From Rhizobium skierniewicense (GTDB taxonomy: Bacteria; Pseudomonadota; Alphaproteobacteria; Rhizobiales; Rhizobiaceae): 64,000 nucleotides of DNA. The notes beneath the pieces are model-generated. The model was not told the origin of the DNA. It did not search any database and worked only from the letters and a program-made list of their open reading frames with translations. Made by a program: the position numbers and the translations under genes. This document shows positions 25,966-41,323 of this stretch, in pieces; positions within the stretch are counted from its first letter, which is position 1; each line of letters begins with the position of its first letter. The stretch is from positions 310,001-374,000 of the forward strand of contig NZ_JACIDV010000001.1 in NCBI RefSeq assembly GCF_014196515.1, read 5' to 3'.

Positions 25966-25993
25966 TTTACAAATGATATAAAGTGATAACAAT
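25966..25993 (+). promoter_or_regulatory. Promoter and probable GntR operator of the catabolic operon
   Basis: TTACAAATGATATAAA (25967-25982) matches at 15 of 16 positions a sequence in front of the GntR regulator gene (40121-40136, opposite strand). It overlaps a possible promoter with -35 TTTACA (25966) and a -10 near TAACAAT (25987-25993). The arrangement suggests repression by steric block, which is inference. Confidence 0.55.
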
Positions 25994-26076: not shown

Positions 26077-26754
26077 ATGGAAACTTCATCGCTCACCGCG
26101 CGTCAGATTTACGAGCAGGCCAAGGCAAATCCCACACGTAAACGGTTCGGGTTCGGTCGCAAGCCGATGTTGATCAACATCGATCTGCAATGTGCCTATA
26201 CTTCTCTTGGCGAATTCGTGTCTGCCTACGAGACTGATCCGAGGCAGCTCGATTACGTCAATACACTGTCGAACCTTGCCCGCGACAAGAAGCTTCCCGT
26301 GACCTGGACCTATGTCGCCTACATGGAGTCGGGCGAAGATTGCGGTGTCTGGGGGACCCGAACCAACACGCCGGACTCACTTCAGAACATCAAGGTTGGT
26401 TCGCGCAGGGCAGAGTTCGATCCGCGTCTGCAGATTGATCACGTCAAGGACATCATCATCAACAAGCGCATGGCGTCTCCGTTTCACGAGACGAATCTTC
26501 AGTCCCTGATGGTCTGGCACCAGTGCGATACCGTGGTTCTGACGGGTGGTTCTACATCTGGCTGCGTCCGCGCCTGCGTCGTCGATTCCATTTCGCGCGG
26601 TTATCGGGTTATCGTTCCCGAGGAATGTGTCGCGGACAAGCATGAGAGCCCACACTTCGCCAACCTCTACGACATCGCGGTGAAATACGGCGACGTAATC
26701 CCCGTGGCGGATGCCATTGCCTGGTACGAGGCCTACCAGCCGGAGGAGCGTTAA
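26077..26754 (+). CDS. Isochorismatase-family amidohydrolase (half-amidase-like)
   Basis: The 225-residue protein has the complete cysteine-hydrolase triad of the N-carbamoylsarcosine amidase/maleamate amidase group: Asp36 in NIDLQ, Lys130 in INKRM, and Cys163 in GGSTSGCVRA. Such enzymes hydrolyse terminal amides or carbamoyl groups. I chose ATG 26077, which has GGAGGT 5 nt upstream, rather than the in-frame ATG/GTG codons earlier. It is the first gene of a 14-gene operon. Next to PuuE-type ring-opening hydrolases, a role as half-amidase (half-amide to dicarboxylate plus ammonia) is plausible but unproven. Confidence 0.85.
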   Translation: METSSLTARQIYEQAKANPTRKRFGFGRKPMLINIDLQCAYTSLGEFVSAYETDPRQLDYVNTLSNLARDKKLPVTWTYVAYMESGEDCGVWGTRTNTPDSLQNIKVGSRRAEFDPRLQIDHVKDIIINKRMASPFHETNLQSLMVWHQCDTVVLTGGSTSGCVRACVVDSISRGYRVIVPEECVADKHESPHFANLYDIAVKYGDVIPVADAIAWYEAYQPEER

Positions 26755-26755
26755 A

Positions 26756-27703
26756 ATGGCTGCCGAGGGAACCGCGATGAAGTCGGATCTGGGGCTTTAT
26801 GATTACCTGCCTTGGCCGAACCGTCCCAAGATCGTCTGGCCCGGCAACAAGAAGATCGCCGTCTGGATCGCGCCCAACATCGAGTTCTACGAATACAATC
26901 CGCCGAACAATCCGACCCGCACGCCGTGGGCGCGACCGAACCCGGATGTCCTGCAATATTCCCACCGCGATTACGGCAACCGGGCCGGTTGGCAGCGGAT
27001 GATGGCGGCGATGGACAAGGCCGGGTTTCGCGGTTCCGTCTCTTTGAACGTTGCGCTGTGCGACCACCACCCTGAAATCATCAAGGCCTGCGCTGATCGT
27101 GGCTGGGAGTTCTTTTCCCACGGTATCTACAACACCCGTTATGTCTATAATCTCGATATCGAGCAGGAACGCGCCGTTATTCGCGATGCTTTCGATACGG
27201 TCCGCAAACACACCGGTCAGGAATTGGCCGGGTGGCTCTCGCCCGCGCTCTCCAACAATTTCTGGACGATGGATATTCTGTCGGAAGCCGGTATTCAGTA
27301 TACCTGCGATATGTTCCACGACGACCAGCCGATGCCGGTCAAGGTCAACACAGGCAAGCTGATCTCGATGCCTTACTCGCTCGAGATGAACGACGTCATC
27401 GTCTACAACAGCCAGAAGGTCACATCGCGCCATTACGGCGAAATCATCAAACGGCAGTTCGATCAGCTCTACAAGGAAGGCGACGAAAGCGGCACTGTCA
27501 TGTGCATTCCGCTACACCCATACCTTGTAGGGCAGCCGCACCGCATCGACGCGTTTGCCGAAGCTATTGAATATATCGCCAGCCATGATGGCGTGTGGCA
27601 AACGACAGGCCGCGAGATTGCCGCCGCCTACTATTCCACCGGTGCCTATGACGCCATGAGCGCTGCTATGGCTGCCCAAAAAATCGGGAAAGGTGCGCGC
27701 TGA
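26756..27703 (+). CDS. Polysaccharide-deacetylase-fold hydrolase, PuuE-like, copy 1
   Basis: This 315-residue NodB-fold protein resembles the PuuE (cofactor-independent allantoinase) and cyclic-imidase subgroup rather than true chitin deacetylases: it has no signal peptide, reads FFSHGIYN where deacetylases have a HxxxH metal site, and has GWLSPALSNN and a C-terminal PLHPYLVGQPHR segment. These relatives open cyclic ureides or imides. The ATG is 1 nt after the isochorismatase stop, with GGAGGAG upstream. ATG 26777 is an alternative start. A homologous second copy follows immediately. Confidence 0.8.
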   Translation: MAAEGTAMKSDLGLYDYLPWPNRPKIVWPGNKKIAVWIAPNIEFYEYNPPNNPTRTPWARPNPDVLQYSHRDYGNRAGWQRMMAAMDKAGFRGSVSLNVALCDHHPEIIKACADRGWEFFSHGIYNTRYVYNLDIEQERAVIRDAFDTVRKHTGQELAGWLSPALSNNFWTMDILSEAGIQYTCDMFHDDQPMPVKVNTGKLISMPYSLEMNDVIVYNSQKVTSRHYGEIIKRQFDQLYKEGDESGTVMCIPLHPYLVGQPHRIDAFAEAIEYIASHDGVWQTTGREIAAAYYSTGAYDAMSAAMAAQKIGKGAR

Positions 27704-28626
27704 TGTCAATGCCTGAAGACTATCTCAACTATCCCGCCCGTCGTTATGGCATGGACCATGACCGCTATGCGTGGAGCAATCTTTTCACTCGCAAGCCGAT
27801 CGCATGGCCGGATGGCGCGCGTGTTGCGCTCTCCATCGTCACCCATGTCCAGCATTTTCCACTGGATATGCCATCCAAGCCATTCAAGGCGCCAGGTGCC
27901 TTGTCCATGCCGTACCCGGACTTTCGATATTATACGAACCGTGACTACGGAAATCGGATCGGCATTTTCCGCATTCTCAAGCTTCTGGCGGAAAAGGAGC
28001 TGGAAACCAGCTTTGCCATCAATGGTGTGATTGCAGCGCGGTATCCGGCACTGATCGAAGCCGTCGTAAGAGGCGGGCATGAGATTATCGCCCACGGTCT
28101 GGATATGGGCAAGGTCCACCATTCCGGGTTGGGTGAAGACGAAGAAAATGCCATCATCGTCGAGGCCTTGAAACTGCTTCGTGAAGCGAGCGGACAGAAG
28201 GTCGAGGGCTGGCTGTCGCCGGGTCGGGCGCAGGGTTTCAATACGCCCGATCTTTTGGCGTGCAACGGTGTCGCTTACAGTCTGGATTGGGCAAACGACG
28301 ACTTGCCTTATGAGATGCAGACGAAAAACGGTGCACTCCTCGCCGTTCCCATGGCCTACGAGACTGACGACCGTGTGGTTGCCGAGGAGTATTTCCACTC
28401 CGAAGCGGAATGGGTGCAGCAGGTCAAGGACCGCTTCGACGTTCTCTATCGTGAAAGCGCGGACTATGGCGGCCGCATCATGAGCCTTCCCCTGCATAGC
28501 TGGGTCTCCGGCATGCCTTACCGCATCGAATATCTGCGTGAGGCGCTCGATTACATTCTGTCGCATGACGGCGTGTGGAATGCGCCCGCAGGCGACATTT
28601 GCGAAGCGTTCCGTGCTGCGCGCTAA
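27703..28626 (+). CDS. Polysaccharide-deacetylase-fold hydrolase, PuuE-like, copy 2
   Basis: The 307-residue protein is a paralogue of the preceding gene: shared are FRYYTNRDYGNR, GHEIIAHGLD, GWLSPGRAQGFN, PLHSWVSGMPYR and YILSHDGVW. Its ATG overlaps the previous stop as TGATG. Two adjacent diverged copies suggest either a hetero-oligomer or two related ring substrates. As with copy 1, the metal-binding HxxxH of deacetylases is not evident, supporting a PuuE/imidase-like activity. The exact substrate is unknown. Confidence 0.8.
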   Translation: MSMPEDYLNYPARRYGMDHDRYAWSNLFTRKPIAWPDGARVALSIVTHVQHFPLDMPSKPFKAPGALSMPYPDFRYYTNRDYGNRIGIFRILKLLAEKELETSFAINGVIAARYPALIEAVVRGGHEIIAHGLDMGKVHHSGLGEDEENAIIVEALKLLREASGQKVEGWLSPGRAQGFNTPDLLACNGVAYSLDWANDDLPYEMQTKNGALLAVPMAYETDDRVVAEEYFHSEAEWVQQVKDRFDVLYRESADYGGRIMSLPLHSWVSGMPYRIEYLREALDYILSHDGVWNAPAGDICEAFRAAR

Positions 28627-28662
28627 AGCCGAACCTCGAACTGATAACAGGAAGACAAGGTC

Positions 28663-30069
28663 ATGGCGCAAGCAGTCGCACCGCGCACAATGTTGGGCAA
28701 GATCTGGGATGAGCATGAGATATTGCGACATCCCGCCGGGCCATCGCTGCTTTATATCGACCGCGATATGATCCATGAAGGCAGTTTTCATGCCTTTGCG
28801 GATTTGAAACGGCGTGGCCTGAAGCCACGGCGTCCACAGCAAATCTTCGGTGTCGCCGATCACTATGTCCCGACACGGGGGCGAACATCGCGTGATGCGG
28901 CAAGTCCCGCCATTGCCCACATGATCGATACGTTCGATGAAAACATGGAATGGGGCGGTATGCGCCATTTCGGAATAACGAGCCGTGAGCAGGGCATCGT
29001 CCACGTCGTGGCACCGGAGCAGGGTATTACGCTTCCCGGCCTCACCATCGTCTGTTCCGACAGCCATACCTCGACCCAGGGCGCGCTGGGCGCAATCGCT
29101 TTCGGCATCGGTCAATCCGAAAACGCCCATGTTCTGGCCACCCAGACGCTGTGGCAGTCACGTCCCAAAACCATGCGGATCACGATCGATGGAAAGCTTG
29201 GACAGGGCGTCACGGCCAAGGACGTGATGCTGGCGCTGATCGCGAAGATCGGCGCAGCAGGCGCTGGGGGGCATGCCATCGAATTCGCCGGGCAGGTTGT
29301 TCGAGACCTTTCCATTGAGGGGCGGTTGACGCTGTGTAACATGTCGATCGAGGCTGCTGCCCGTTTCGGTATGGTTGCTGCAGACGAGACGACTTTCGCT
29401 TACGTCAGAGGCCGCAATTTCGCGCCATCGGAGCAGGAATGGGAGGGCGCGGTTGCGCATTGGCGCACGCTCTCCAGCGATCCGGAGGCTTTTTTCGACG
29501 CGGAAATGTCGTTGGATGGTGCCGATATTGCGCCGATGGTGACATGGGGCACGAGCCCGGAAGATGCCGTTTCGATCGACGGACGCGTTCCTGACCCATC
29601 AAGTTTCGACAGTTCTGACAAGCGCAAGGCCGCAACGAAATCACTTGAATATATGGAGCTCACCCCTGGCACGCCTCTGGACGGCTTGAAACTGGACAAG
29701 GTCTTTATCGGTTCCTGCACCAACAGCCGGATCGAGGATTTACGGGCTGCCGCCTCCATACTCAAAGGCCGCAGGGCAATGATACCGGCCATAGTCGTGC
29801 CAGGTTCGACGCAGGTAAAAGAGCAGGCAGAAGCTGAGGGCATTGCCCGTACCTTCCGCGACGCGGGTTTCGAATGGCGCGACTCCGGCTGTTCCATGTG
29901 CGCGGCGATGAATGGCGATGTGGTTGGCCCCGGTGAACGCTGTGCCTCCACCTCAAATCGTAACTTCGTCGGCCGCCAGGGCCCGGGTGCCCGCACCCAT
30001 CTGGTTAGTCCCGCAATGGCTGCTGCCGCTGCCATCCGCGGCTGTCTGACCGACGTGCGCGGGATGTGA
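28663..30069 (+). CDS. Aconitase-superfamily hydratase large subunit (LeuC-like)
   Basis: The 468-residue protein is a complete LeuC homologue: VCSDSHTSTQGALG carries the first conserved site, SCTNSR and GCSMC carry the three cysteines (about 351, 409, 412) that hold a 4Fe-4S cluster. Members of this group include 3-isopropylmalate dehydratase, citraconate/maleate hydratase and dimethylmaleate hydratase. The setting, between ring-opening hydrolases and an ABC importer with no leuA or leuB, argues for a catabolic maleate-type hydratase instead of leucine synthesis. It forms a pair with the small subunit 7 nt downstream. Confidence 0.88.
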   Translation: MAQAVAPRTMLGKIWDEHEILRHPAGPSLLYIDRDMIHEGSFHAFADLKRRGLKPRRPQQIFGVADHYVPTRGRTSRDAASPAIAHMIDTFDENMEWGGMRHFGITSREQGIVHVVAPEQGITLPGLTIVCSDSHTSTQGALGAIAFGIGQSENAHVLATQTLWQSRPKTMRITIDGKLGQGVTAKDVMLALIAKIGAAGAGGHAIEFAGQVVRDLSIEGRLTLCNMSIEAAARFGMVAADETTFAYVRGRNFAPSEQEWEGAVAHWRTLSSDPEAFFDAEMSLDGADIAPMVTWGTSPEDAVSIDGRVPDPSSFDSSDKRKAATKSLEYMELTPGTPLDGLKLDKVFIGSCTNSRIEDLRAAASILKGRRAMIPAIVVPGSTQVKEQAEAEGIARTFRDAGFEWRDSGCSMCAAMNGDVVGPGERCASTSNRNFVGRQGPGARTHLVSPAMAAAAAIRGCLTDVRGM

Positions 30070-30076
30070 GGACACG

Positions 30077-30694
30077 ATGATGAAAGCCTTTATTCGTGAA
30101 ACATCTACGGCAATATCTATACCCGGCGTCAACTGCGACACGGACCAGATCATTCCCGGCCGTTTTCTCAAGGAAGATCGCGCGCAGGGCTATGGGCAGT
30201 TCCTGTTTCACGATATCCGGCGCAATGAAAAAGGTGACCTCGATCCGGTCTTTCCACTGAACAAGCCGGGTGCCGATGCCGCGACCATCCTTCTGGTCGA
30301 AGATAATTTCGGTTGCGGATCGTCCCGTGAGGGCGCCGTTTACGCTTTGGTCGATCATGGCATCCGGGCGCTCATCGCACCGAGCTTCGGCGATATCTTC
30401 TTCAACAATGCCCTGAAAAACGGGCTCGTGCCTGTCCGCCTGGCCGCTGAACACTGCGAGGCGCTCGCGGATCATCTCAACCGTTTTCCGGATGCCGAGG
30501 TTACGGTCGATCTGGAGGGCGCACAACTGGTGCTGCCGGGTAATCTCGGCACGCACCCCATCACGATCGATCCCTTCGCGCGTGACTGTATTTTACGCGG
30601 TCTGGACGAGATCGAGATGACGTTCACATTCATGGAGCAGATCACCGCCTTCGAAACCGATCGAATGGCGTCACATTCCTGGCTGGGCCGTTGA
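30077..30694 (+). CDS. Aconitase-superfamily hydratase small subunit (LeuD-like)
   Basis: The 205-residue swivelling-domain subunit has NCDTDQIIPGRFLK near the N-terminus and the substrate-recognition motif GCGSSREGAVYAL, both typical of LeuD-like proteins. With the upstream LeuC-like subunit it should form a hydro-lyase acting on an unsaturated dicarboxylate. GAGGA precedes two adjacent ATG codons (30077 and 30080); either may be used. Confidence 0.88.
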   Translation: MMKAFIRETSTAISIPGVNCDTDQIIPGRFLKEDRAQGYGQFLFHDIRRNEKGDLDPVFPLNKPGADAATILLVEDNFGCGSSREGAVYALVDHGIRALIAPSFGDIFFNNALKNGLVPVRLAAEHCEALADHLNRFPDAEVTVDLEGAQLVLPGNLGTHPITIDPFARDCILRGLDEIEMTFTFMEQITAFETDRMASHSWLGR

Positions 30695-30749
30695 CGGGCG
30701 GACCAGCGAGTTTCTTTTGCCGTCTCATAAAAAAACTGGGAGCATAACA

Positions 30750-31967
30750 ATGACATTTGAAATTCACAGACGCAGCCTTCTAAAAGCATCCGGCGCCCTG
30801 GCCGTCGGTTTCGCCGCACCGTCCATCCTGCGCGCGCAGACACCGACCATAAAGGTTGGTGTCATCGAACCGCTGACGGGTAACCTTGCCTACAACGGCA
30901 CGCAAAGTGCAGCCGGCGCAAAGTTCGCAGCCGAAGCCATCAATGCCGCAGGCGGCATCAAGTCCATGGGCGGCGCGAAAATTGAGCTCGTCGTGGTCGA
31001 TGCGCAGAGCCGCCCGGAAGCCGCAGCTGCTGCTGTCGATACTCTCATTCAGGCCGATGCCTGTGCGTTTACTGGCGCGACCGCCTCTGCGCTTGGGCTT
31101 GCCTCTTCACAGGCTGCAGCAAAATACAATCTCGCGCAGGTCTTTTCCATCGGTACAGCGGAAACGGTTGTCCAACGTGGCCTGCCGAATGTCTTCCGCT
31201 TTACCCCCGGCGTTAACAAGTGCACCAGCGTCGCGCTCGAAAACCTGAAGCTTCTGAATGAGAGCACGGGCAGTACGGTCAAGACTGCGGCAATCGTCCA
31301 TGAAGACGGGCCTTTCGGCTCCAACATGGCAAAAATTCTGGCCGAGCAATTGCCAAAGCAGGGCATTGAGGTCGTTGAGACCATTTCCCATCCAACGCCC
31401 CAGCGTGACTTCTCCAACATCGCGCTGCGCGTCAAGGCGTCCAAGGCCGATATTCTCATTCCTTCGAACTACATCAACGAATATACGCTGATGGCGCGCG
31501 CTCTCAGCCAGCAACGCGTAGAACTGAAGGCGATCTATTCGATCCTTGGCGGTGCGGCGTCGAACATCAAGTTCGTCCGCGAAAACAACAAGGTCGCGCA
31601 GTACGTCATGGACTGCAATCACTGGTACGATCCGTCCAAGGACTTGTCCAAGGCGCTCGCCGCCAGCGTTGCCGCTGCCAATCTGGATATGACCTATGAC
31701 GTCATGGTGTCCTACGCGACGATCCAGGTTATTGCCGACGCGCTGGAGCGTAGCGGTTCCGCCGACCGCCAGAAGATGATCGAGGCTTTGGCTGCATCCA
31801 CCTTCGATCAGTCGATCATGCCTTACGGCCCGATAAAGTTCGTCAATGGCGACAATGTCAATTCTCGGCCGGTGAACACGCAGATTCGTGGTGAAAAGAT
31901 CGAACTGGTCTTTCCAAAGGAATATGCCACCGCAGAAGCGGTCTTCCCGATCCCTGCTCAAAACTGA
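30750..31967 (+). CDS. Branched-chain-amino-acid-type ABC transporter substrate-binding protein
   Basis: The 405-residue periplasmic protein has a leader of twin-arginine style (RRSLLKASGALAVGF) cleaved near ILRAQ, then a type I periplasmic binding fold: KVGVIEPLTGNLAYNG, GGAKIELVVVDAQ, DILIPSNYIN. LivJ/AmiC-like proteins bind amino acids, amides, urea or aromatic acids. Together with the next four genes it forms a complete HAAT importer. The start at 30750 has GGGAG upstream. Export by Tat rather than Sec is inferred from the RR motif alone. Confidence 0.9.
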   Translation: MTFEIHRRSLLKASGALAVGFAAPSILRAQTPTIKVGVIEPLTGNLAYNGTQSAAGAKFAAEAINAAGGIKSMGGAKIELVVVDAQSRPEAAAAAVDTLIQADACAFTGATASALGLASSQAAAKYNLAQVFSIGTAETVVQRGLPNVFRFTPGVNKCTSVALENLKLLNESTGSTVKTAAIVHEDGPFGSNMAKILAEQLPKQGIEVVETISHPTPQRDFSNIALRVKASKADILIPSNYINEYTLMARALSQQRVELKAIYSILGGAASNIKFVRENNKVAQYVMDCNHWYDPSKDLSKALAASVAAANLDMTYDVMVSYATIQVIADALERSGSADRQKMIEALAASTFDQSIMPYGPIKFVNGDNVNSRPVNTQIRGEKIELVFPKEYATAEAVFPIPAQN

Positions 31968-31976
31968 CGCGGTCTC

Positions 31977-32006
31977 GCCCCCATGGTCGTGAATGTCTGT
32001 GGGGGC
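31977..32006 (+). other. Hairpin between binding-protein and permease genes
   Basis: GCCCCCA (31977-31983) and TGGGGGC (32000-32006) form a perfect 7-bp stem with a 16-nt loop. Such stems after a binding-protein gene often protect its mRNA and give it higher expression than the permeases; that role is inferred. Confidence 0.5.
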
Positions 32007-32036
32007 ACTCTTCAAACGACAGAGAGGCGAGCCCTT

Positions 32037-32906
32037 ATGTCAAGTCTGATCTTACCTGCCGTGTTGAGCGGCCTGATGATGGGAGCCGTCTATGCGCTGG
32101 TGGCGCTGGGCTTGACCCTGATTTATGGCGTGCTCCACATCATCAACTTCGCGCATGGCAGCCTGTTGATGCTGGCGCTCTATGCCGTCTACTTTCTGTA
32201 TTTCCATTTCGGCATCGATCCGTATCTCGCCATTCCGATCGTTCTTCCGGCCTTCTTCGCGTTGGGTTACGTGCTGCAACGGTTCCTGATCGCGCCAATG
32301 AGCAGCGGATCGGAACAGAACGTCCTGCTCATCACGCTTGCGGTGTCGATGATCATCGACAATCTGGCGCTCTACTTCTGGACGTCCAATACGCGCACGG
32401 CCGATATCGCCTATGCCTATGATACGGTCGAAGTGCTGGGCGCCTATCTGCCGCTCGGGCGCGTGATTGCTTTTGGTGCCGCGCTCGCCGTCGCGCCGCT
32501 GCTTTGGTGCTTCATGGCCTATACCCGCACAGGCTCGGCGATCCGCGCCGTGGCGATTGAAAAGCGCGGTGCCGAACTCGTCGGTATCGATGTCAACCAC
32601 ACCTATGCGGTTTGTTTTGGCATCGGCACGGCCTGCGTGGCACTTGCCGCTTGCCTGCTGTTGCCAACCTTCTACATCACCCCACAGGTTGGCTATACCT
32701 TCGTGCTCGTTGCCTTCACCACGGTGGTCTTGGGCGGAATGGGCAGTCTGCTGGGTGCCTTGGTCGCCGGTCTGCTTCTGGGTGTCATCGAGTCCCTCTG
32801 CGGTCTCTTCCTTGGCGAAAGCCTCGGTCAGATCGGCATCTTTCTAGCCTTCATTCTCATCCTTCTCTTCAAACCGTCAGGGCTACTCGGGAGGGCAAAG
32901 ACATGA
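32037..32906 (+). CDS. ABC transporter permease, LivH type
   Basis: The 289-residue integral membrane protein has about eight hydrophobic segments and the LivH-type N-terminus (LSGLMMGAVYALVALGLTLI, YGVLHIINFAHG) and TTVVLGGMGSLLGALVAG near the C-terminus. It forms the channel with the LivM-type permease. ATG 32037 follows GAGAGGCGAG. Its stop overlaps the next ATG by 4 nt. Confidence 0.93.
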   Translation: MSSLILPAVLSGLMMGAVYALVALGLTLIYGVLHIINFAHGSLLMLALYAVYFLYFHFGIDPYLAIPIVLPAFFALGYVLQRFLIAPMSSGSEQNVLLITLAVSMIIDNLALYFWTSNTRTADIAYAYDTVEVLGAYLPLGRVIAFGAALAVAPLLWCFMAYTRTGSAIRAVAIEKRGAELVGIDVNHTYAVCFGIGTACVALAACLLLPTFYITPQVGYTFVLVAFTTVVLGGMGSLLGALVAGLLLGVIESLCGLFLGESLGQIGIFLAFILILLFKPSGLLGRAKT

Positions 32907-33880
32907 GACCTCAATCCATCGGGCAAATTGCCCTTATTGCGGCGGCTCTCGCCTATCTCTTCGGGGTCTATTTCGCGTCGTCGCCAGTGTGGATGGGCTT
33001 TACCATCAATGCGTTGATTGTCGCCGTCGTTGCCCTGTCATGGAATATCACCGGCGGTTTTGGCGGCATGTCCTCCTTCGGTCACGCAGCACTTTATGGC
33101 ACTGGTGCCTATGCATCGGCCATCCTTCAGGTGCAATATGGTGTCAATGCGTGGGTTGGCTTCGGCGCGGGCATTCTTGCAGGTGCTATCATGGGTGCCT
33201 TCATTGGCGCGCTTGCTTTCCGTTACGGTTTGAGAGGCTCCTACTTCGCGCTCGTTACCTTGGCCTTTGCAGAAGTGCTGCGCATCTGCGCGTCTTCCTT
33301 CGATTTCACCGGCGGTGGTAGCGGATTGCAATTGAAGCTGGCACCCGGCGTTGGCAATCTGCAATTCAACGACCGTGTCATTGCTTACACCGCTCTGTTG
33401 GTCGTGGTCGCGTTGGTCATGGCGCTGACGGCTCTCATCAAATATTCCCGTTTCGGTGCTTATCTGATCGCCGTTAGGGAAAATGAAGATGCAGCGCGTG
33501 CACTCGGCATCGACACCTACAAGATCAAGGTGCAGGCGATGGCGATCTCCGGCGCATTCGGCGGTCTGGCCGGTGTGCTGTATCTCCAACTGTGGCTCTT
33601 CATCGACAGCAACGTCGTCTATGGCAGCGCGGTCTCTATCGAAGCTCTGATCGGCCCGATTATCGGCGGTGCGGGCACGATTTGGGGTCCACTTCTCGGC
33701 ACGCTCGGCCTGCACCTGCTCGGAGAAGGTGCCAAACATCTGCTGCCCAATGCGCCGGGTCTGAACTTCGTGCTCTACGCGATTGTGCTGATCTGCGCGC
33801 TGCGCTTCCTGCCGAACGGCCTTGTCGGCCTTGCGGGCAAGCTTGGTGCCTTCAAGAAGAAGGAGGACGACAATGCTTGA
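32903..33880 (+). CDS. ABC transporter permease, LivM type
   Basis: The 325-residue membrane protein has the LivM pattern: LSWNITGGFGGMSSFGHAAL, YGLRGSYFALVTLAFAEVLR, and AVRENEDAARALGIDT, the cytoplasmic loop that contacts the ATPases. The start at 32903 overlaps the livH-type stop as ATGA; a longer frame starting inside the previous gene was rejected. It partners the LivH-type permease in the importer. Confidence 0.93.
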   Translation: MRPQSIGQIALIAAALAYLFGVYFASSPVWMGFTINALIVAVVALSWNITGGFGGMSSFGHAALYGTGAYASAILQVQYGVNAWVGFGAGILAGAIMGAFIGALAFRYGLRGSYFALVTLAFAEVLRICASSFDFTGGGSGLQLKLAPGVGNLQFNDRVIAYTALLVVVALVMALTALIKYSRFGAYLIAVRENEDAARALGIDTYKIKVQAMAISGAFGGLAGVLYLQLWLFIDSNVVYGSAVSIEALIGPIIGGAGTIWGPLLGTLGLHLLGEGAKHLLPNAPGLNFVLYAIVLICALRFLPNGLVGLAGKLGAFKKKEDDNA

Positions 33881-34613
33881 GGTCCGAAATCTTTCCAAAA
33901 GCTTCGGCGGCTTGAAAGCCGTCACGGATGCTTCGCTCGATGTACCCGAGGGTTCCATCGTCGGACTGCTGGGCCCCAACGGTGCTGGCAAGACAACCTG
34001 CTTCACCATGATTGCCGGTTTTACCAAGCCGGACGAAGGCACCGTCCGCTTTCAGGGCAAGGACATCACCGGCGTTGCGCCGCACAGCATCTGCGCACTT
34101 GGGATGATCCGCACCTTCCAGATCGTCCAGCCCTTCGCAGGCCTGACGGTTCAGGAAAACATCGCTGTTGGTGCCTATCTTCACCACCATGACCGTCGCG
34201 AAGCGATGTCGGTGGCGCGGGATGTGGGAAAACGGCTCGGCATGGGAGCGATGCTTGATCGCCCCGCATCGTCGCTGACGATTGCGGGACGCAAGCGGCT
34301 GGAGCTTGCACGTGCGCTGGCAACAGGTGCCAAGCTGCTGCTGCTGGATGAGGTCATGGCGGGGCTGATCCCGTCCGAGATCACCGAGATCGTCGGCATT
34401 ATCAGAACGATCCGCGACGAAGGGCACACCTTCCTGATGATCGAACATGTCATGCAGGCGGTCATGCAGCTTGCCGAAACGGCTTATGTGCTGAACCAGG
34501 GCAAGATGATTGCCCACGGAACGCCGCGTGAACTCGTCAAGGACCCATCCGTGGTGGAAGCCTATCTGGGCCATGGTGCGGCCGCACGTCTGCAGGAGGA
34601 AAACCATGCTTGA
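33873..34613 (+). CDS. ABC transporter ATPase, LivG type
   Basis: The 246-residue ATPase has Walker A GPNGAGKTT, a Q-loop near MIRTFQIVQPF, and Walker B LLLLDEVMAGL. The signature region reads LTIAGRKRLELARAL, where LivG proteins more often show LSYGQQR or similar, so the canonical LSGGQ is weak; this deviation recurs in some LivG relatives. The H-loop histidine is in LMIEHVM. ATG 33873 overlaps the end of the LivM-type gene. Confidence 0.92.
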   Translation: MLEVRNLSKSFGGLKAVTDASLDVPEGSIVGLLGPNGAGKTTCFTMIAGFTKPDEGTVRFQGKDITGVAPHSICALGMIRTFQIVQPFAGLTVQENIAVGAYLHHHDRREAMSVARDVGKRLGMGAMLDRPASSLTIAGRKRLELARALATGAKLLLLDEVMAGLIPSEITEIVGIIRTIRDEGHTFLMIEHVMQAVMQLAETAYVLNQGKMIAHGTPRELVKDPSVVEAYLGHGAAARLQEENHA

Positions 34614-35307
34614 TATCAAGGGTATCCGCGCAGGCTATGGCTCGATGAGCGTGCTGCGAGGCATCGATATGAGCGTCGAAAACGGCGAAATCGTTGCCCT
34701 GTTGGGGTCCAACGGCGTTGGCAAGACGACGCTCAACAACGTCATATCGGGCTTCATCAAACCAAGCGCCGGATCGATCTCCTTCAAGGGCGTGACGATA
34801 ACAGGCAAAAACGCGCGTGACATCGTGGCGCTCGGCATCGCCCATGTGCCGGAGGGCCGAAAGGTTTTTCCCAATCTGTCGGTTGGAGAAAATCTGAAGC
34901 TTGGTGCGTTTCGCCGTGCCAGCAAAAACACCAAGCAGAATTTCGAGCGCATCTGCGAAATCTTCCCGAGGCTTCGTGAACGAATAACCCAGCTTGCGGG
35001 TACTCTTTCTGGCGGTGAGCAGCAAATGCTGGCGATCGGTCGGGGCATGATGTCGGAGCCGGAACTGCTTATTCTGGACGAGCCCTCGCTCGGTCTGTCG
35101 CCCATCATGGTCGAGGAGATGTTTGGTCTGATCACGAAGATCAATGCGGATGGCGTGGCTGTATTGCTGGTGGAGCAGAACGTGATGCAGTCGTTGAGTG
35201 TCGCAAAGCGCGCCTATGTCATCGAGCAGGGGCGTTTTGTCATGCAGGGAGAGGCCGCCACACTGCTGGCGGATCCGCAGCTGCGCCAAGCCTATCTCGG
35301 AATGTGA
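34606..35307 (+). CDS. ABC transporter ATPase, LivF type
   Basis: The 233-residue ATPase has Walker A GSNGVGKTT, signature LSGGEQQMLAIGRG, Walker B LLILDEPSLGLSP and an H-loop-equivalent VLLVEQN. VPEGRKVFPNLSV is typical of LivF. It pairs with the LivG-type ATPase. The start ATG 34606 overlaps the previous stop. This completes the five-part importer in the middle of the catabolic operon. Confidence 0.94.
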   Translation: MLDIKGIRAGYGSMSVLRGIDMSVENGEIVALLGSNGVGKTTLNNVISGFIKPSAGSISFKGVTITGKNARDIVALGIAHVPEGRKVFPNLSVGENLKLGAFRRASKNTKQNFERICEIFPRLRERITQLAGTLSGGEQQMLAIGRGMMSEPELLILDEPSLGLSPIMVEEMFGLITKINADGVAVLLVEQNVMQSLSVAKRAYVIEQGRFVMQGEAATLLADPQLRQAYLGM

Positions 35308-35363
35308 GATGCTGCCCCGGATGGAGTAAGCCGGGGCCAATTTACGGAGAAATGGAGAATACA

Positions 35364-36257
35364 ATGTCCCTTACACGTACCCAGCGTCTGCGGCAGCTGC
35401 TCGCAGGCGAACGAGCCCTCATGGCGCCCGGTGTGGTCGATGCCATGTATGCCCGCCTCGTAACCGAAGCCGGTTTTGACGCCATGTATATGACGGGCGC
35501 TGGCACATCCGCCACGCGTCTCGGCTACCCGGATGTCGGCCTGCTGACCATGACCGAGATGGTCGATAATGCCACGCGTATTGCCGACGCCTCCGACATT
35601 CCGCTGATTGCCGATGCTGATAATGGTTTCGGCGGTCCGCTGAACGTCCGCCGTGCCATTCAGCTTTATGAGCGTGGCGGCGTCGCTGCGGTACATCTGG
35701 AGGACCAGGTTCTGCCAAAGCGCTGCGGCCATCTGGCGGGTAAGCAGATTGTTCCAGTCGAAGATATGGTGGCGAAGGTGAAGGCCGCCGTGGATGCACG
35801 GATCGACCAGAACTTTGTCGTCATCGCCCGCACGGATGCTCTGGCGCTGCATGGTCGAAACGCCGCCTTTGACCGAGCCGAGATGTACCGCGAAGCCGGT
35901 GCTGACATCATCTTCATCGAAAGCCCCGGCCCGGATGATTTAGCCCACATCGCCCCGCGCTTTCCCGGCATTCCGCTGCTCTACAATATGGCGACCTCGG
36001 GCAAGACGCCGTTTCTGACGCGGTCGGAAATCGAAGCGCTAGGTTTCAAGCTCATCATCTACCCCAACTGGCTGCTGCTTTCCGCCTGCGAAGCCGCGCG
36101 CAAGACGCTTCAGGTCTTGAAGACCGAGGAGACCATCGCTTCGGTTGCTCCCAACGTCATGAACTTCCAGGAGTTCTTTGACATGGCGCGGATGCCTGAA
36201 ATTCAGGAACTGGAAGCCCGCTACGGCACACCCGAAGCAAACCGCACCAGCTATTGA
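35364..36257 (+). CDS. Isocitrate-lyase/PEP-mutase superfamily C-C lyase
   Basis: The 297-residue TIM-barrel protein has the superfamily's metal-binding DADNGFGG (Asp84, Asp86), Glu113 in HLEDQ, and the lyase loop KRCGH with the catalytic Cys121. That cysteine marks 2-methylisocitrate-lyase-like, dimethylmalate-lyase-like and alkylmalate-lyase-like members rather than phosphonopyruvate enzymes. Such lyases split a substituted malate into pyruvate (or glyoxylate) and a short acid. Following a LeuCD-like hydratase in the same operon, a hydration-then-cleavage pair is likely. ATG 35364 has GGAGA 5 nt upstream. Confidence 0.85.
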   Translation: MSLTRTQRLRQLLAGERALMAPGVVDAMYARLVTEAGFDAMYMTGAGTSATRLGYPDVGLLTMTEMVDNATRIADASDIPLIADADNGFGGPLNVRRAIQLYERGGVAAVHLEDQVLPKRCGHLAGKQIVPVEDMVAKVKAAVDARIDQNFVVIARTDALALHGRNAAFDRAEMYREAGADIIFIESPGPDDLAHIAPRFPGIPLLYNMATSGKTPFLTRSEIEALGFKLIIYPNWLLLSACEAARKTLQVLKTEETIASVAPNVMNFQEFFDMARMPEIQELEARYGTPEANRTSY

Positions 36258-36273
36258 GCAGGAGATTTGAGCC

Positions 36274-37674
36274 ATGGCAGTGCTATCTGCGGAAGGCGTG
36301 ACGTTCGATTTTGAAGTGCCGGTCGTCGTCGTGGGGGCAGGGGCATGCGGTCTCGTCGCAGCCCTTGCGGCACACGATGTGGGGCAAGAGGTGATGGTGC
36401 TGGAGCGGGACGAGAACCCGACGGGCTCTACCTCGCTGTCCGCTGGTCTCATTCCGGCACCGTGCACCCGATTGCAGAAGGAAGCCGGTATCGAGGACAG
36501 CCCCGAACTTTTTGCGAAAGACCTCGTAGCCAAGACCCATGACCATACGCCGCACGATATGGCGCTGGTTGCGGCGCAAGCCGCAGGTCCTATGATCGAC
36601 TGGCTGATGGATACGCATAAGGTGGAGTTCGAACTGGTGACGGGGTTCATCTATCCCGGTCATTCGCGCCTTCGCATGCACGGCCCGAAAAGTCGTACCG
36701 GTGCGGATCTGGAGCAGGCGCTTCTTGCCGCTGTGTCCAACGCCGATATCGATGTCGTCACAAATGCGTCCGTCGAAGATCTCTATGTGGATACCACTGG
36801 TCGCGTCACCGGCGTGCGGTTTCGGCGGCCCGATGGCGCGCTGGAAATGCTGGGCTGCAAGGCGCTCGTTCTGGCCTCCTGCGGCTTTGCTGGCGATGTT
36901 GCCTTGGTGCAGAAATACATCCCCGAAATTGCGGACGCAGAATGCTGCGGTCACCTTTCCAATACCGGCGATGCGGTGAAATGGGGACTGGAAATTGGTG
37001 CCGCGCTCGCAGATATGGGTGGCTATCAGGGCCATGGTTCTGTCGCTCACCCCCACGGATTACCACTAACCTGGGCCGTTATCACCAAGGGCGGCATTCT
37101 TTTGAACGCCGAGGGCCAGCGCTTTTCCAACGAGATGCGCGGCTATTCCGAACATGCCGCAGAAGTCGCAGCGCAGCCCGACCACATCGCCTGGGATATC
37201 TATGATTCCAGAGGAGATGAGGCGGGCATGGGCTTTTACGATTACCGGGAAATCCGCAAGCTGGGCGCCATCAAGACAGCAAACAGCCTGGAAGAACTGG
37301 CGGCTGTAACAGGCCTGCCGCTTGCAGATATCCGGGAAGAATTCGAGGCCATCGATACATCCGCACGCACCGGCACGCCGGATCGGTTTGGTCGGACGTT
37401 CACGCAGGATGATGTGCTCAGCGCGCCCTATCATGCCGTGAAAGTCAACGGCGCGCTGTTCCACACCCAAGGCGGGTTGGTGATCAACGCCGAGGCGCGA
37501 GTGCTACGCGAGGATGGCACAGCCTTGCCGAACCTGCTGGCAGGTGGGGGCGCGGCGCGCGGTGTCTCGGGAGATTCCAATTACGGCTACCTGTCCGGCA
37601 ACGGCCTTTTGACGGCAACCAGCTTCGGTCGGTTGGCGGGCATGACCGCCGCGCGGATTGCTGCCGAAAGCTGA
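36274..37674 (+). CDS. FAD-dependent dehydrogenase/reductase of the fumarate-reductase flavoprotein family
   Basis: The 466-residue flavoprotein has an N-terminal dinucleotide-binding VVGAGACGLVAALAA followed by a glutamate in VLERDE, GGILLNAEGQRFSNE, and HTQGGLVINAEARV near the C-terminus, all typical of fumarate reductase, tricarballylate dehydrogenase and ketosteroid dehydrogenase relatives. It could introduce or remove a C=C bond next to a carboxylate or carbonyl. No signal peptide or heme-binding domain is present, so it is cytoplasmic. It follows the lyase gene by 16 nt. Confidence 0.85.
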   Translation: MAVLSAEGVTFDFEVPVVVVGAGACGLVAALAAHDVGQEVMVLERDENPTGSTSLSAGLIPAPCTRLQKEAGIEDSPELFAKDLVAKTHDHTPHDMALVAAQAAGPMIDWLMDTHKVEFELVTGFIYPGHSRLRMHGPKSRTGADLEQALLAAVSNADIDVVTNASVEDLYVDTTGRVTGVRFRRPDGALEMLGCKALVLASCGFAGDVALVQKYIPEIADAECCGHLSNTGDAVKWGLEIGAALADMGGYQGHGSVAHPHGLPLTWAVITKGGILLNAEGQRFSNEMRGYSEHAAEVAAQPDHIAWDIYDSRGDEAGMGFYDYREIRKLGAIKTANSLEELAAVTGLPLADIREEFEAIDTSARTGTPDRFGRTFTQDDVLSAPYHAVKVNGALFHTQGGLVINAEARVLREDGTALPNLLAGGGAARGVSGDSNYGYLSGNGLLTATSFGRLAGMTAARIAAES

Positions 37675-37691
37675 AACAGGAGGAGAGCTTG

Positions 37692-38465
37692 ATGAAGAAG
37701 GTTATGGTCATCGTACCGTTTGCCATGGGGCAGGATGACATCACCCGCAGGCAAGCGCAGATGGATGCGGTCGATCTCGGCCCAGGCATCGAGTTTCACT
37801 ATCGATCCGTTCGGATGGGTCCGAAGAACTATTCGAGCCAGCACGACATGGCCCTTGCTGACGTCTCGATCCTCGATGCAGGTCTAGACGCGGAGAAAGA
37901 CGGCTTCGATGCCATCTGCATCGACACCATGTCCGATAGCGGCATGTCGATGCTCCGCTCGGTGCTCACCATACCGGTTATCGCTCCGGGCCGTCATTCC
38001 ATGCTGATGGCGCAGATGCTGGGTGACAAGTTCTCCATCCTCATGATGTGGGATCGCTGGAAAATGCTCTACACCAAAACGCTGGGCGAGCTTGGGATGG
38101 AGCATAAATGTGCCTCCATGCGATCCATCGGCGTAACGCCTGATAATAAAAGCCTGCTGGCTGGCAAGGAAGACGAGGTGTTCCCGCTTCTGCTGGCTGC
38201 CGCGAAAAAATGCGTCGAAGAGGATGGCGCGCAGGTGCTGATCCTGGGATCCACGACCATGCATGAGGCGCATTCCTGGCTGTCTGCCCGCATCGGCGTT
38301 CCCGTCATCAATCCCGGACCGCTGACCTACAAGCTGGCATCCATCGCACTCGACCTGAAGCTCACCCACAGCAAGGCGACATGGCCGACGCCCCTATCGC
38401 CAAAGCACGACATGATCCGCGCCATCGGCGCTGCCGGAGCGGCCTATCTGGAGAGCAACCAATGA
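37692..38465 (+). CDS. Asp/Glu/hydantoin racemase superfamily protein, copy 1, atypical catalytic sites
   Basis: The 257-residue protein has the two-lobed racemase-superfamily fold (VMVIVPF at the start, INPGPLTYKLA near the end). The first catalytic loop reads CIDTMSDSGM (Cys76, Thr79) and the second LGSTTMHE, with Ser187 where racemases have LGC. So the second cysteine is missing and the first is shifted or replaced. A two-base racemase mechanism is therefore unlikely; a maleate-isomerase-like, decarboxylase-like or hydrolase-like role is open. An upstream TTG at 37689 is a less likely start than ATG 37692, which follows AGGAGAG. Confidence 0.8.
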   Translation: MKKVMVIVPFAMGQDDITRRQAQMDAVDLGPGIEFHYRSVRMGPKNYSSQHDMALADVSILDAGLDAEKDGFDAICIDTMSDSGMSMLRSVLTIPVIAPGRHSMLMAQMLGDKFSILMMWDRWKMLYTKTLGELGMEHKCASMRSIGVTPDNKSLLAGKEDEVFPLLLAAAKKCVEEDGAQVLILGSTTMHEAHSWLSARIGVPVINPGPLTYKLASIALDLKLTHSKATWPTPLSPKHDMIRAIGAAGAAYLESNQ

Positions 38466-39232
38466 TCCGCATTCTCGTCATCGTTCCCTTCGCACTGGAT
38501 GCCGAGGGTGTGCGCAATCGTCAGGCGCAGTCGCAATATGTACCGCTACCTGCGGATTGGGAACTGACCTATCGCCCCGTCACCTGCGGCCCGACATCCT
38601 TCATGTCTCCGCACGACTGGGGGCTGATGGACCTCGCCATCTTCGAGGCCGGGTGCAAGGCGCAGGATGAAGGGTTTGACGCCGTCTGCATCGACACGAT
38701 GTCGGATAGCGGCATGGTCATGCTCCGCTCCGTCCTCTCCATTCCCGTCATCGGCGCAGGCAAGGCTTCGATGCTCTATGCGCTGACGCTCGGTGGCAAG
38801 TTTTCCGTGCTTGCGCAATGGGAGCCAGCGCTGCCACGTTATCGCAAGGCTATCAGAGAATATGGTTTCGACCGCCAATGCGCCTCTGTGCGCAGTTTCG
38901 ATCAGCCGCCTGATTTCTCGAACTTGCTGGGCGGCAAGGAGGACAGTGTGTTTCCACGGATGCGCGATGTTGCCATGCGCTGTATCGAAGACGATGGTGC
39001 AGAGGTCATTTGCCTGGGATCGACAACCATGCATCAGGCCGGAGAGTATCTGGCTGCGAACCTGCCTGTCCCCGTCGTCAATCCCGGACCCCTGACTTAC
39101 AAGCTGGTCGAGACCTTTCTGGCGCTTGGCCTCACCCACGGCAGGGACGTTTATCCACCGCCTGTCGAACCGAGGCTCGACATGCTGCACGCCATGATGA
39201 AAGCTGGAGCTGAAGCAGAAGCGAAGGCCTAA
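38462..39232 (+). CDS. Asp/Glu/hydantoin racemase superfamily protein, copy 2, atypical catalytic sites
   Basis: The 256-residue protein is a paralogue of the preceding one with the same two substitutions at the same positions: CIDTMSDSGM (Cys76, Thr79) and LGSTTMHQ (Ser187). Its ATG overlaps the previous stop as ATGA. The parallel conservation of a non-standard active site in both copies suggests a shared, specific chemistry and perhaps a heteromer. It is the last gene of the operon; the regulator gene converges on it 28 bp away. Confidence 0.8.
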   Translation: MIRILVIVPFALDAEGVRNRQAQSQYVPLPADWELTYRPVTCGPTSFMSPHDWGLMDLAIFEAGCKAQDEGFDAVCIDTMSDSGMVMLRSVLSIPVIGAGKASMLYALTLGGKFSVLAQWEPALPRYRKAIREYGFDRQCASVRSFDQPPDFSNLLGGKEDSVFPRMRDVAMRCIEDDGAEVICLGSTTMHQAGEYLAANLPVPVVNPGPLTYKLVETFLALGLTHGRDVYPPPVEPRLDMLHAMMKAGAEAEAKA

Positions 39233-40114: not shown

Positions 40115-40136
40115 ATGTCATTTATACCATTTGTAA
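40115..40136 (-). promoter_or_regulatory. Second copy of the catabolic-operon operator-like element
   Basis: On the minus strand 40136-40121 reads TTACAAATGGTATAAA, 15/16 identical to 25967-25982. It is extended here by an ATG-N10-CAT symmetry (40115-40130). A TATAAT hexamer follows at 40109-40104 on the same strand and may be the -10 of the regulator gene. Confidence 0.55.
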
Positions 40137-40294: not shown

Positions 40295-41323
40295 TTGGGG
40301 CATTGTTATCAGTTGTCGGATGCGAATTTGAAACTAACGGTCATTCTCAAAACGCTGAACGAGGAAAAGCGTATCGGCGCTGCTATCGAAAGCGTCATGG
40401 CTGCATTGGTGGGTATTGAGGGCGAAATCATCGTGGCCGATAGCGGGTCGCGCGATAAAACCGTCGAGATCGCATCACAATATCCGGTCATCATCGCCCA
40501 GATTGAAGCGCCTGCCAAAGCCAGTTGCGGCATTGGCCCACAACTGGGTTATCAGTACAGCAAGGGTGAGTTCATTTGCCTGATGGACGGCGATATGCTG
40601 CTGGATCCGACATTTTTGCCTGCGGCACTTGACTACATGGATAAGAACCCGCGCGTCGCGGGCGTTAGCGGCCATGTCAACGAGGTCAATCTCGATAATC
40701 TGGAGTTTACCCGGCGGGTGCAGAGACATGCACCGGAAAACCTGACCGGTGTTCTTGACCGGCTGAATGGGGGTGGCCTTTATCGCCGAGCGGCTATCGA
40801 AGCCGTCGGTTATTTTTCAGACCGGAATCTGCACGGTTACGAAGAGTTCGATCTTGGACAGCGCCTTCGGTTGCGTGGGTGGACGCTTTATCGCCTCGAC
40901 AGGCGGTTCGTGGACCACTTCGGCCATAGCATCAATTCCTATGTGCTGCTCACACGCCGCTGGTCGTCGAAATATCTTCGTGGCGTGGGCGAGCTGTTGC
41001 GTGCCGGGTCCGAACAGTCTCGTTTAGGAGATTTGACCAGCGAGCTTTCCGAAATTCGACTGTGGCTGGGTGTCTATGCATGGTGGGTGATCCTGTTGGT
41101 CTGCCTTATCGCAGGCTTCTTCAACGGATATGGCTTTATCGTATTTGGGGTTGCACTCGTCGCGCCGGTCGCCTTGATGAGCATCCGGCAACACAGTCTG
41201 TCGTTGGGGTTTTATGCCGTCGTCGCTTGGTGTTTCCACGCCGCTGCACTGCCTCTCGGTTTCCTGAGCGCGCGCCAGCCGCCCGAGAGGTGGGTTGAAA
41301 GCAAACTTTTGAAGTCGCAATGA
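40295..41323 (+). CDS. Glycosyltransferase family 2, membrane-associated
   Basis: The 342-residue protein is a GT-A enzyme: VILKTLNEEKRIGAAIESV, GEIIVADSGSRDKT, and the metal-binding DGD in ICLMDGDMLLDP. Two hydrophobic segments at about 250-275 and 280-300 should attach it to the inner membrane. It probably adds a sugar to a lipid-linked exopolysaccharide precursor. The start is uncertain: the frame opens with TTG 40295 after AGGGATG, and no in-frame ATG precedes the first conserved strand. It overlaps the next gene by 4 nt. Confidence 0.85.
   Translation: MGHCYQLSDANLKLTVILKTLNEEKRIGAAIESVMAALVGIEGEIIVADSGSRDKTVEIASQYPVIIAQIEAPAKASCGIGPQLGYQYSKGEFICLMDGDMLLDPTFLPAALDYMDKNPRVAGVSGHVNEVNLDNLEFTRRVQRHAPENLTGVLDRLNGGGLYRRAAIEAVGYFSDRNLHGYEEFDLGQRLRLRGWTLYRLDRRFVDHFGHSINSYVLLTRRWSSKYLRGVGELLRAGSEQSRLGDLTSELSEIRLWLGVYAWWVILLVCLIAGFFNGYGFIVFGVALVAPVALMSIRQHSLSLGFYAVVAWCFHAAALPLGFLSARQPPERWVESKLLKSQ

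What the first reader, a model, noticed from the sequence alone, without database searches (positions are those of the whole stretch)
26077..39232. Possible cyclic-imide / alkylmaleate degradation operon not matching a pathway I know
One 14-gene operon combines two PuuE-type ring-opening hydrolases (allantoinase/cyclic-imidase subgroup), an N-carbamoylsarcosine/maleamate-amidase-like enzyme with full triad, two Asp/Glu-racemase-superfamily proteins (the superfamily that includes maleate isomerase), a LeuCD-like hydratase (relatives hydrate citraconate, maleate or dimethylmaleate), an isocitrate-lyase-family lyase with its catalytic Cys (relatives cleave alkylmalates), a fumarate-reductase-type flavoprotein and a HAAT importer. 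Read in order this gives: imide, half-amide, unsaturated dicarboxylate, substituted malate, pyruvate plus a short acid. Substituted maleimides such as those released from tetrapyrrole breakdown are one speculative natural substrate for a plant-associated bacterium. The family assignments are from motifs; the pathway is inference.
Basis: partly seen in the sequence, partly recalled or inferred. Interest (0 to 1): 0.85.

Follow-up and report, generated by a model that had tools for sequence, protein, structure and literature searches.

The report
Unexplained cyclic-amide breakdown gene cluster
A run of 14 bacterial genes, kept together in related soil, plant and water bacteria, looks like an undescribed route for importing a small ring-shaped nitrogen compound, opening the ring and cutting what is left into ordinary metabolites; which compound it is remains unknown.

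Summary
The 14-gene operon (26077-39232) is real and looks like one regulated catabolic unit. An operator-like motif occurs only twice in the 4.8 Mb genome: before the first operon gene and before the adjoining GntR gene. The amidase gene lies just ahead of the cluster in 22 of 22 relatives tested. Across AG1-bearing loci, unrelated enzymes stand in for each other at two steps: PuuE-type hydrolases versus HyuAB or dihydropyrimidinase-type enzymes, and LeuCD versus MmgE/PrpD. This supports cyclic-amide opening, then (de)hydration and isocitrate-lyase-type cleavage. Separate LeuC, aconitase and true allantoinase genes exist elsewhere. Substrate and alkylmaleate step are unproven; tetrapyrrole maleimides remain speculation. 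Ten open-library searches found no description. Verdict: new variant of a known kind (cyclic-amide catabolism), with one truly odd enzyme pair.

The parts
25971..25988 (+). operator-like site upstream of the first operon gene; it overlaps a TTTACA-16-AACAAT promoter-like match (25966-25993) of a kind found as often in shuffles
   Evidence: one of only two whole-genome matches, control 0; in 7 of 7 window-type upstream regions read, window included
26077..26754 (+). CSH: isochorismatase-family amidase (N-carbamoylsarcosine / maleamate amidase-like)
   Evidence: PF00857; best PDB 4l07, then an N-carbamoylsarcosine amidohydrolase; triad segments conserved
26777..27703 (+). PE1: PuuE-like cyclic-amide hydrolase (alternative start 26756)
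   Evidence: TIGR03212 126.6 bits, cut-off 424.6; best PDB PuuE allantoinase 3cl6
27703..28626 (+). PE2: second PuuE-like hydrolase, 32% identical to PE1
   Evidence: TIGR03212 127.3 bits; PDB 1z7a, 3cl6
28663..30069 (+). LeuC-like hydratase large subunit, extra copy
   Evidence: PF00330; GSCTN and GCSMC motifs conserved; another LeuC (54% identical) and an aconitase in the genome
30077..30694 (+). LeuD-like hydratase small subunit
   Evidence: PF00694, TIGR00171
30750..31967 (+). HAAT substrate-binding protein
   Evidence: PF13458; LivJ/K-type PDB relatives
32037..32906 (+). LivH-type permease
   Evidence: conserved in place in relatives; not scanned
32903..33880 (+). LivM-type permease
   Evidence: conserved in place in relatives; not scanned
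33873..34613 (+). LivG-type ATPase
   Evidence: conserved in place in relatives; not scanned
34606..35307 (+). LivF-type ATPase
   Evidence: conserved in place in relatives; not scanned
35364..36257 (+). isocitrate-lyase/PEP-mutase-family lyase, KRCGH catalytic Cys at residue 121
   Evidence: PF13714, best PDB 2,3-dimethylmalate lyase 3fa3; under the prpB cut-off (275.1 < 354.4)
36274..37674 (+). FAD_binding_2 flavoprotein of fumarate/urocanate-reductase fold, probably a dehydrogenase
   Evidence: PF00890; model pLDDT 91.9; best fold urocanate reductase 6t86; active-site changes
37692..38465 (+). AG1: hydantoin/allantoin-racemase-fold protein without either catalytic Cys (alternative start 37689)
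   Evidence: PF01177; model pLDDT 92.8; best fold allantoin racemases, TM 0.80-0.84
38462..39232 (+). AG2: paralogue of AG1 (51%), also without catalytic Cys
   Evidence: PF01177; degenerate in clusters L034-L036
39261..40076 (-). GntR-family (UTRA/HutC type) regulator, convergent with the operon
   Evidence: PF07702 + PF00392; in the same place in many window-type relatives
40116..40132 (-). operator-like site upstream of the GntR gene
   Evidence: second of the only two whole-genome matches

Best explanation
This is an inducible catabolic operon for a small cyclic amide, most simply an alkyl-substituted cyclic imide. Proposed order: the HAAT transporter imports it; the PuuE-like pair opens the ring; the cysteine amidase removes ammonia from the half-amide, leaving a substituted succinate/maleate-type diacid; the flavoprotein inserts or shifts a C=C next to a carbonyl; LeuCD adds water to give an alkylmalate; the ICL-family lyase cuts it into a 2-oxo acid, probably pyruvate, and a short carboxylic acid. 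AG1/AG2 probably isomerise or epimerise an intermediate by chemistry that does not use the usual cysteine pair. GntR represses the operon and its own gene until an intermediate binds. Shown here: gene content, conservation of the cluster, the unique pair of operator-like sites, unrelated enzymes at the same two steps in sister clusters, loss of the racemase cysteines and of reductase residues. Inferred: every reaction, the order, the substrate, repression.
For: Amidase gene just upstream on the same strand in 22 of 22 window-type genomes. In 46 AG1 loci longer than 17 kb: a ring-opening hydrolase in 38 (PuuE-type 30, HyuAB 11, dihydropyrimidinase-type 3, overlapping), LeuC and/or MmgE/PrpD in 39, ICL family in 34, flavoprotein in 31 (family names rest on scanned representatives). 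On the AG1 tree PuuE versus HyuAB needs one change and LeuCD versus MmgE/PrpD two, mixed and empty loci left out. HyuAB of L034 match caprolactamase subunits best, under the cut-off. No aminotransferase or ammonia lyase appears among the recurring families that were identified (25 of 33), which favours an imide over a hydantoin. Amidase and lyase best PDB hits 4l07 and 3fa3. Separate LeuC, aconitase and true PuuE elsewhere in the genome. Two operator-like sites genome-wide, control 0 (the pattern was drawn from these two sites).
Against: No substrate, product or induction is known. NCBIfam would call the operon LeuC a 3-isopropylmalate dehydratase (637.7 against cut-off 560.25). AG1/AG2, HyuAB, dihydropyrimidinase and the carbamoylsarcosine-hydrolase-like amidase are all also classes used on hydantoins. 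Variovorax cluster L036 has the PuuE pair, amidase and AG pair without LeuCD or MmgE/PrpD, and an amino-acid-type ABC transporter. L065 (lyase, LeuCD, AG pair, flavoprotein) and Tistrella L035 have no recognised ring-opener in the cluster, so the halves can occur apart; 8 of 46 loci have no ring-opener and 7 no hydratase. Eight of 33 recurring families were not identified. The 80 loci are the best 80 of 518 hits and lean towards window-like ones.
Confidence: 0.45

Rival explanations
1. A substituted-hydantoin (ureide) route: PuuE pair, HyuAB or dihydropyrimidinase open a 5-substituted hydantoin, the amidase acts as N-carbamoylase, AG1/AG2 act on the stereocentre, and the carbon skeleton then passes through LeuCD and the lyase.
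For: AG1 folds like allantoin/hydantoin racemases; the amidase is close to N-carbamoylsarcosine amidohydrolase; HyuAB, and in L081 a D-hydantoinase/dihydropyrimidinase over its cut-off, occur in sister clusters.
Against: AG1/AG2 lack both racemase cysteines; no transaminase or ammonia lyase among the 25 of 33 recurring families identified; the flavoprotein matches FAD_binding_2 far better than DAO.
Confidence: 0.2
2. A lactam or partly reduced N-heterocycle is the substrate; the ring-openers are lactamases and the diacid forms only after oxidation.
For: HyuAB of L034 match caprolactamase subunits best (497.8 and 326.9 bits, cut-off 1000); an old-yellow-enzyme-family gene adjoins cluster L034 and a gene annotated tRNA-dihydrouridine synthase stands in the same place in L035; the 3HCDH-family gene of some relatives has a pyridine-pathway dehydrogenase as second PDB hit.
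Against: No ring oxygenase or aldehyde dehydrogenase in the window operon; PuuE itself acts on a small cyclic imide (PMC3084791, passages).
Confidence: 0.15
3. Two joined but independent functions: nitrogen scavenging from amides (CSH, PE1, PE2) and catabolism of an alkyl-dicarboxylate or alkyl-citrate (LeuCD, lyase, flavoprotein, AG pair).
For: The halves occur apart in L036, L035 and L065.
Against: CSH stands beside the rest in 22 of 22 window-type genomes; operator-like sites only before CSH and GntR; unrelated ring-openers beside the same acid genes in sister clusters.
Confidence: 0.12
4. The natural substrates are methylethyl- or methylvinylmaleimide or hematinic acid from tetrapyrrole breakdown.
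For: Hydration plus lyase of the derived alkylmaleates would give pyruvate and a short acid; I recall that the petal death protein, second PDB hit of the lyase, cleaves an ethyl-methylmalate. Some hosts are plant-associated or aquatic by record title.
Against: Nothing in the sequences points to this ring; one search on bacterial use listed two papers, on heme taphonomy and on leaf Raman spectra (listing only).
Confidence: 0.08

Closest known systems
Cyclic-imide catabolism (imidase, half-amidase; Blastobacter, Pseudomonas putida YZ-26; recalled)
   Same: ring-opening hydrolase followed by an amidase
   Different: adds LeuCD, an alkylmalate-type lyase, a flavoprotein, a racemase-fold pair and a HAAT importer; the relation of PE1/PE2 to that imidase was not tested
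Nicotinate fermentation via 2,3-dimethylmaleate (Eubacterium barkeri; recalled)
   Same: LeuCD-type hydratase plus ICL-family lyase giving pyruvate and a short acid
   Different: no B12 mutase, methylitaconate isomerase or enamidase among the 14 genes
Hydantoin utilisation (HyuE racemase, hydantoinase, carbamoylase)
   Same: racemase fold, cyclic-amide hydrolase, carbamoylase-like amidase
   Different: racemase cysteines absent; PuuE-type ring openers; C-C lyase module
2-Methylcitrate cycle (PrpB, PrpC, PrpD, AcnD)
   Same: ICL-family lyase, with MmgE/PrpD in sister clusters
   Different: no citrate synthase among the 14 genes; lyase and two PrpD representatives under the curated cut-offs
Maleamate/maleate branch of nicotinate and nicotine degradation
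   Same: CSH best PDB hit 4l07, recalled as a maleamate amidase
   Different: AG pair is not maleate-isomerase-like (TM 0.58-0.60 against 0.80-0.84 for allantoin racemases, no Cys)

Membership tests
Allantoinase PuuE | score over the curated TIGR03212 cut-off (424.6 bits) | tested here: not met
   126.6 and 127.3 bits; the genome's own true PuuE scores 524.4 at C4
Hydantoin/allantoin racemase | fold of the subfamily | tested here: met
   AG1 model: allantoin racemases top, TM 0.80-0.84
Hydantoin/allantoin racemase | two catalytic cysteines | tested here: not met
   Thr79 and Ser187 stand in their places; Cys-to-Ser removes nearly all OpaE activity (PMC12661438, passages)
Maleate cis-trans isomerase | nearest fold and catalytic Cys | tested here: not met
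   TM 0.58-0.60 to 2xed, 4fq5, 4fq7; no Cys at either place
Arylmalonate decarboxylase | Cys188 and Gly74 with the Thr75/Ser76 dioxyanion hole | tested here: not met
   Ser at the Cys188 place, Thr at Gly74; only Ser76 matches (motifs from PMC4996985, passages, aligned by eye)
Fumarate/urocanate reductase | fold | tested here: met
   flavoprotein model, TM 0.80-0.87 to urocanate reductase and flavocytochrome c entries
Fumarate reductase | active-site H365, E378, R381, R402, H504, R544 (roles recalled; several are named as mutated in PDB titles) | tested here: not met
   read off the alignment to 1d4c: H365 kept; E378, R381, R402, H504 and the Arg at 545 are W, I, Y, F, N; the neighbouring H505 is kept
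2,3-Dimethylmalate / alkylmalate lyase | ICL/PEPM family with catalytic Cys in KRCGH | tested here: met
2,3-Dimethylmalate / alkylmalate lyase | activity on alkylmalates | not testable with these tools
   no assay
LeuCD leucine biosynthesis | sole LeuC copy of the genome | tested here: not met
   higher-scoring LeuC at C6:201358, 54% identical; but the operon LeuC is over the leuC model cut-off
Cyclic imide hydrolase (PuuE-type imidase) | hydrolysis of succinimide or maleimide | not testable with these tools
   no assay; reference sequence not held
2-Methylcitrate cycle | methylisocitrate lyase over the curated cut-off | tested here: not met
   275.1 against 354.4

The most novel reading that the evidence does not exclude
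The operon is a previously undescribed aerobic pathway that turns substituted cyclic imides, including tetrapyrrole-derived maleimides, into pyruvate and a short acid, and AG1/AG2 form a heteromeric racemase-fold enzyme that works with threonine, serine and aspartate in place of the two cysteines: a new chemistry for that superfamily.
Probability: 0.1. Interest if true: 0.85.

Novelty: new variant of a known kind. Interest (0 to 1): 0.55.

Why it matters
If right, it names a gene set with which plant, soil and freshwater bacteria use a class of nitrogen ring compounds for which I know no complete aerobic pathway, gives testable candidates for the fate of maleimides and other imides, and identifies a conserved racemase-fold family that has lost its catalytic cysteines yet keeps an invariant active-site region, so its reaction should be new.

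Tried and rejected
Maleate isomerase role for AG1/AG2: rejected (fold ranking and missing Cys). Standard racemase role: unlikely for the same reason. Allantoin route: rejected, true PuuE elsewhere and operon PuuE-like genes far under the cut-off. Leucine biosynthesis or TCA role of LeuCD: unlikely, other copies exist. Fumarate reductase reaction: unlikely. Methylcitrate cycle: no citrate synthase among the 14 genes, lyase under the cut-off. Transporter specificity: PDB relatives of the binding protein are mostly LivJ/K-type and uninformative. Minimal clusters with LeuCD and AG1 (L094, L104, L107): three neighbours in L107 gave an EamA transporter and two proteins without a Pfam hit. Sigma-70 and terminator scans were at the level of shuffles (6 against 6.7; 13 against 13.0). 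Literature: 10 counted searches gave no paper on the cluster; the library holds open-licence papers only.

The operator-like motif was not found on the regulator side of most relatives: by the script (a slightly looser pattern) only in L040, L044 and L047, in the last two before a 3HCDH gene that stands ahead of GntR; in L046 a near form is visible in the alignment; L041, L043 and L057 lack it there. The six distant upstream regions in the same alignment (L086, L111, L105, L096, L118, L065) lack it too.

Full report
Observation. The window is G000:C1:310001-374000. The region 26077-39232 holds 14 same-strand genes with gaps of -8 to +69 nt, in the order amidase (CSH), PE1, PE2, LeuC, LeuD, HAAT binding protein, LivH, LivM, LivG, LivF, ICL-family lyase, flavoprotein, AG1, AG2, then a convergent GntR gene. 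Pfam and NCBIfam confirm the family calls for the ten proteins scanned; the four other transporter genes were placed by conservation. The AG1 position of the Agrobacterium rubi TR3 locus L040 equals that of G596, listed as same genus as the window, so the genome is probably an Agrobacterium; this is an inference.

A conserved, accessory unit. AG1 at E <= 1e-60 is found in 9 of 247 genomes of the family, own included, and in 2 of the 4 genus members searched; at E <= 1e-40 in 17 of 385 of the class, own included. Of the 80 best named loci (of 518 hits), 25 (L040-L063 and L089) show the window-type gene set and order as far as their contigs reach, with the lyase behind AG2 in L062 and the flavoprotein ahead of the transporter in L089. 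The amidase gene was sought in 22 of those genomes and found in 22, same strand, -3 to 1087 nt from the locus edge; the gap leaves room for PE1, which was itself seen only in L062, L038 and L039. R. rhizoryzae L038 and Neorhizobium SOG26 L039 show the operon from CSH to AG2. Several relatives have one more gene after AG2, of the MmgE/PrpD group (L038, L040, L043-L045, L054, L055, L060, L063), absent from the window. Nine of the 80 loci have a 3HCDH-family gene, seven of them next to GntR (family from scans of L038 and L044).

Regulation. GntR has a UTRA domain. The motif AAATGRTATAAAN{0,1}TGAYA, drawn from the two sites themselves, occurs twice in the whole genome (reversed control 0): 25971-25988 before the operon and 40116-40132 before GntR. 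It is in 7 of 7 window-type upstream regions that I read, window included (L038, L039, L127-L130). On the regulator side it was found by script in only three relatives (L040, L044, L047), in two of them before the 3HCDH gene. This supports one regulon that starts at CSH; it does not show binding.

Pathway logic from replacement. In the 46 loci longer than 17 kb (AG1 called in 45), a PuuE-type hydrolase is present in 30, HyuA in 11, a dihydropyrimidinase-type enzyme in 3, at least one of these in 38; LeuC in 24, MmgE/PrpD in 26, at least one in 39; the ICL family in 34; the flavoprotein in 31; AG2 in 32; a CSH-type amidase in 16, an undercount because the 10 kb flank ends inside PE2 in window-type loci. 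Eight of 46 have no ring-opener and seven no hydratase. These labels come from sequence clustering with representatives scanned. On the AG1 tree (51 rows, quick method, L108 dropped) PuuE versus HyuAB needs one change and LeuCD versus MmgE/PrpD two, mixed and empty loci not counted. So the replacements are few and deep, not frequent, but they put unrelated cyclic-amide hydrolases and unrelated (de)hydratases in the same genetic places. Sister clusters L034 and L035 are annotated, the Variovorax cluster.

Enzyme by enzyme. CSH: best PDB 4l07, then N-carbamoylsarcosine amidohydrolase. PE1/PE2: related to PuuE, 126.6 and 127.3 bits against a cut-off of 424.6, while the genome has a true PuuE at C4 (524.4 bits); they are 32% identical to each other and adjacent in the window, L038, L039 and L062. 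LeuCD: an extra copy, 54% to the other LeuC, although NCBIfam would still name it LeuC (637.7 against 560.25). Lyase: KRCGH Cys at residue 121, best PDB 2,3-dimethylmalate lyase, then petal death protein. The Phe two residues before the active-site Glu, where isocitrate lyases carry Trp (recalled), suggests pyruvate rather than glyoxylate as the oxo product. Flavoprotein: model pLDDT 91.9, best fold urocanate reductase. In the alignment to 1d4c H365 is kept, while E378, R381, R402, H504 and Arg545 (recalled as R544 of S. frigidimarina) are W, I, Y, F and N; H505 is kept (roles recalled). A reductase of dicarboxylates is unlikely; a desaturase next to a carbonyl is my guess.

The odd pair. AG1 and AG2 (51% identical) are of the Asp/Glu/hydantoin racemase family. 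The AG1 model (pLDDT 92.8) is nearest to allantoin racemases (TM 0.80-0.84) and far from maleate isomerases (0.58-0.60) and arylmalonate decarboxylases (0.52-0.59). Both catalytic Cys positions are Thr79 and Ser187; in the 29 sequences D78, T79, S81, D82 and the GSTTMH block are invariant; in the 22 position 79 is Thr or Ser, and Ser187 and Thr188 are invariant. In OpaE the C199S and the double Cys-to-Ser variants keep 0.3% activity or less (PMC12661438, passages). AG2 is degenerate in L034-L036, which suggests a heteromer with AG1 as the working subunit. Their reaction is unknown.

What is known. Papers seen: passages of PMC3084791, PMC4996985, PMC12661438 and PMC7609661; all other papers only as search listings. 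None describes this cluster in the 10 counted searches. Statements on imidases, nicotinate fermentation, lyase specificity and fumarate-reductase residue roles rest on recall.

Verdict.

Noticed in passing
window 3707-24438: Type VI secretion island: IcmF/TssM, TssF, VipB, ClpV-type ATPase, Hcp, and a Rap1a-type immunity gene beside a Tae4 amidase effector.
   Followed up: no
window 41320-43500: 726-aa protein without a Pfam match at E 0.001, beside a glycosyltransferase in a polysaccharide gene region.
   Followed up: no
L034 829-1797; L035 5118-6095: Genes directly ahead of the regulator of two sister clusters: in L034 Oxidored_FMN (old yellow enzyme family), though annotated nitronate monooxygenase; in L035 annotated tRNA-dihydrouridine synthase, not scanned.
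   Followed up: partly
L105 10783-12029; L114, L112, L088: Some Burkholderiales and other clusters have a PhyH-type dioxygenase and a SnoaL-like protein near AG1, hinting at an extra oxidation step.
   Followed up: partly
L034 14111-14599: Small protein with a weak tautomerase-like start and a DUF4440-like rest (both under the Pfam cut-offs) between amidase and flavoprotein in cluster B.
   Followed up: partly
G000:C1:546924-547604 and C1:204980-205642: Two further PuuE-like genes in the same genome, under the allantoinase cut-off.
   Followed up: no
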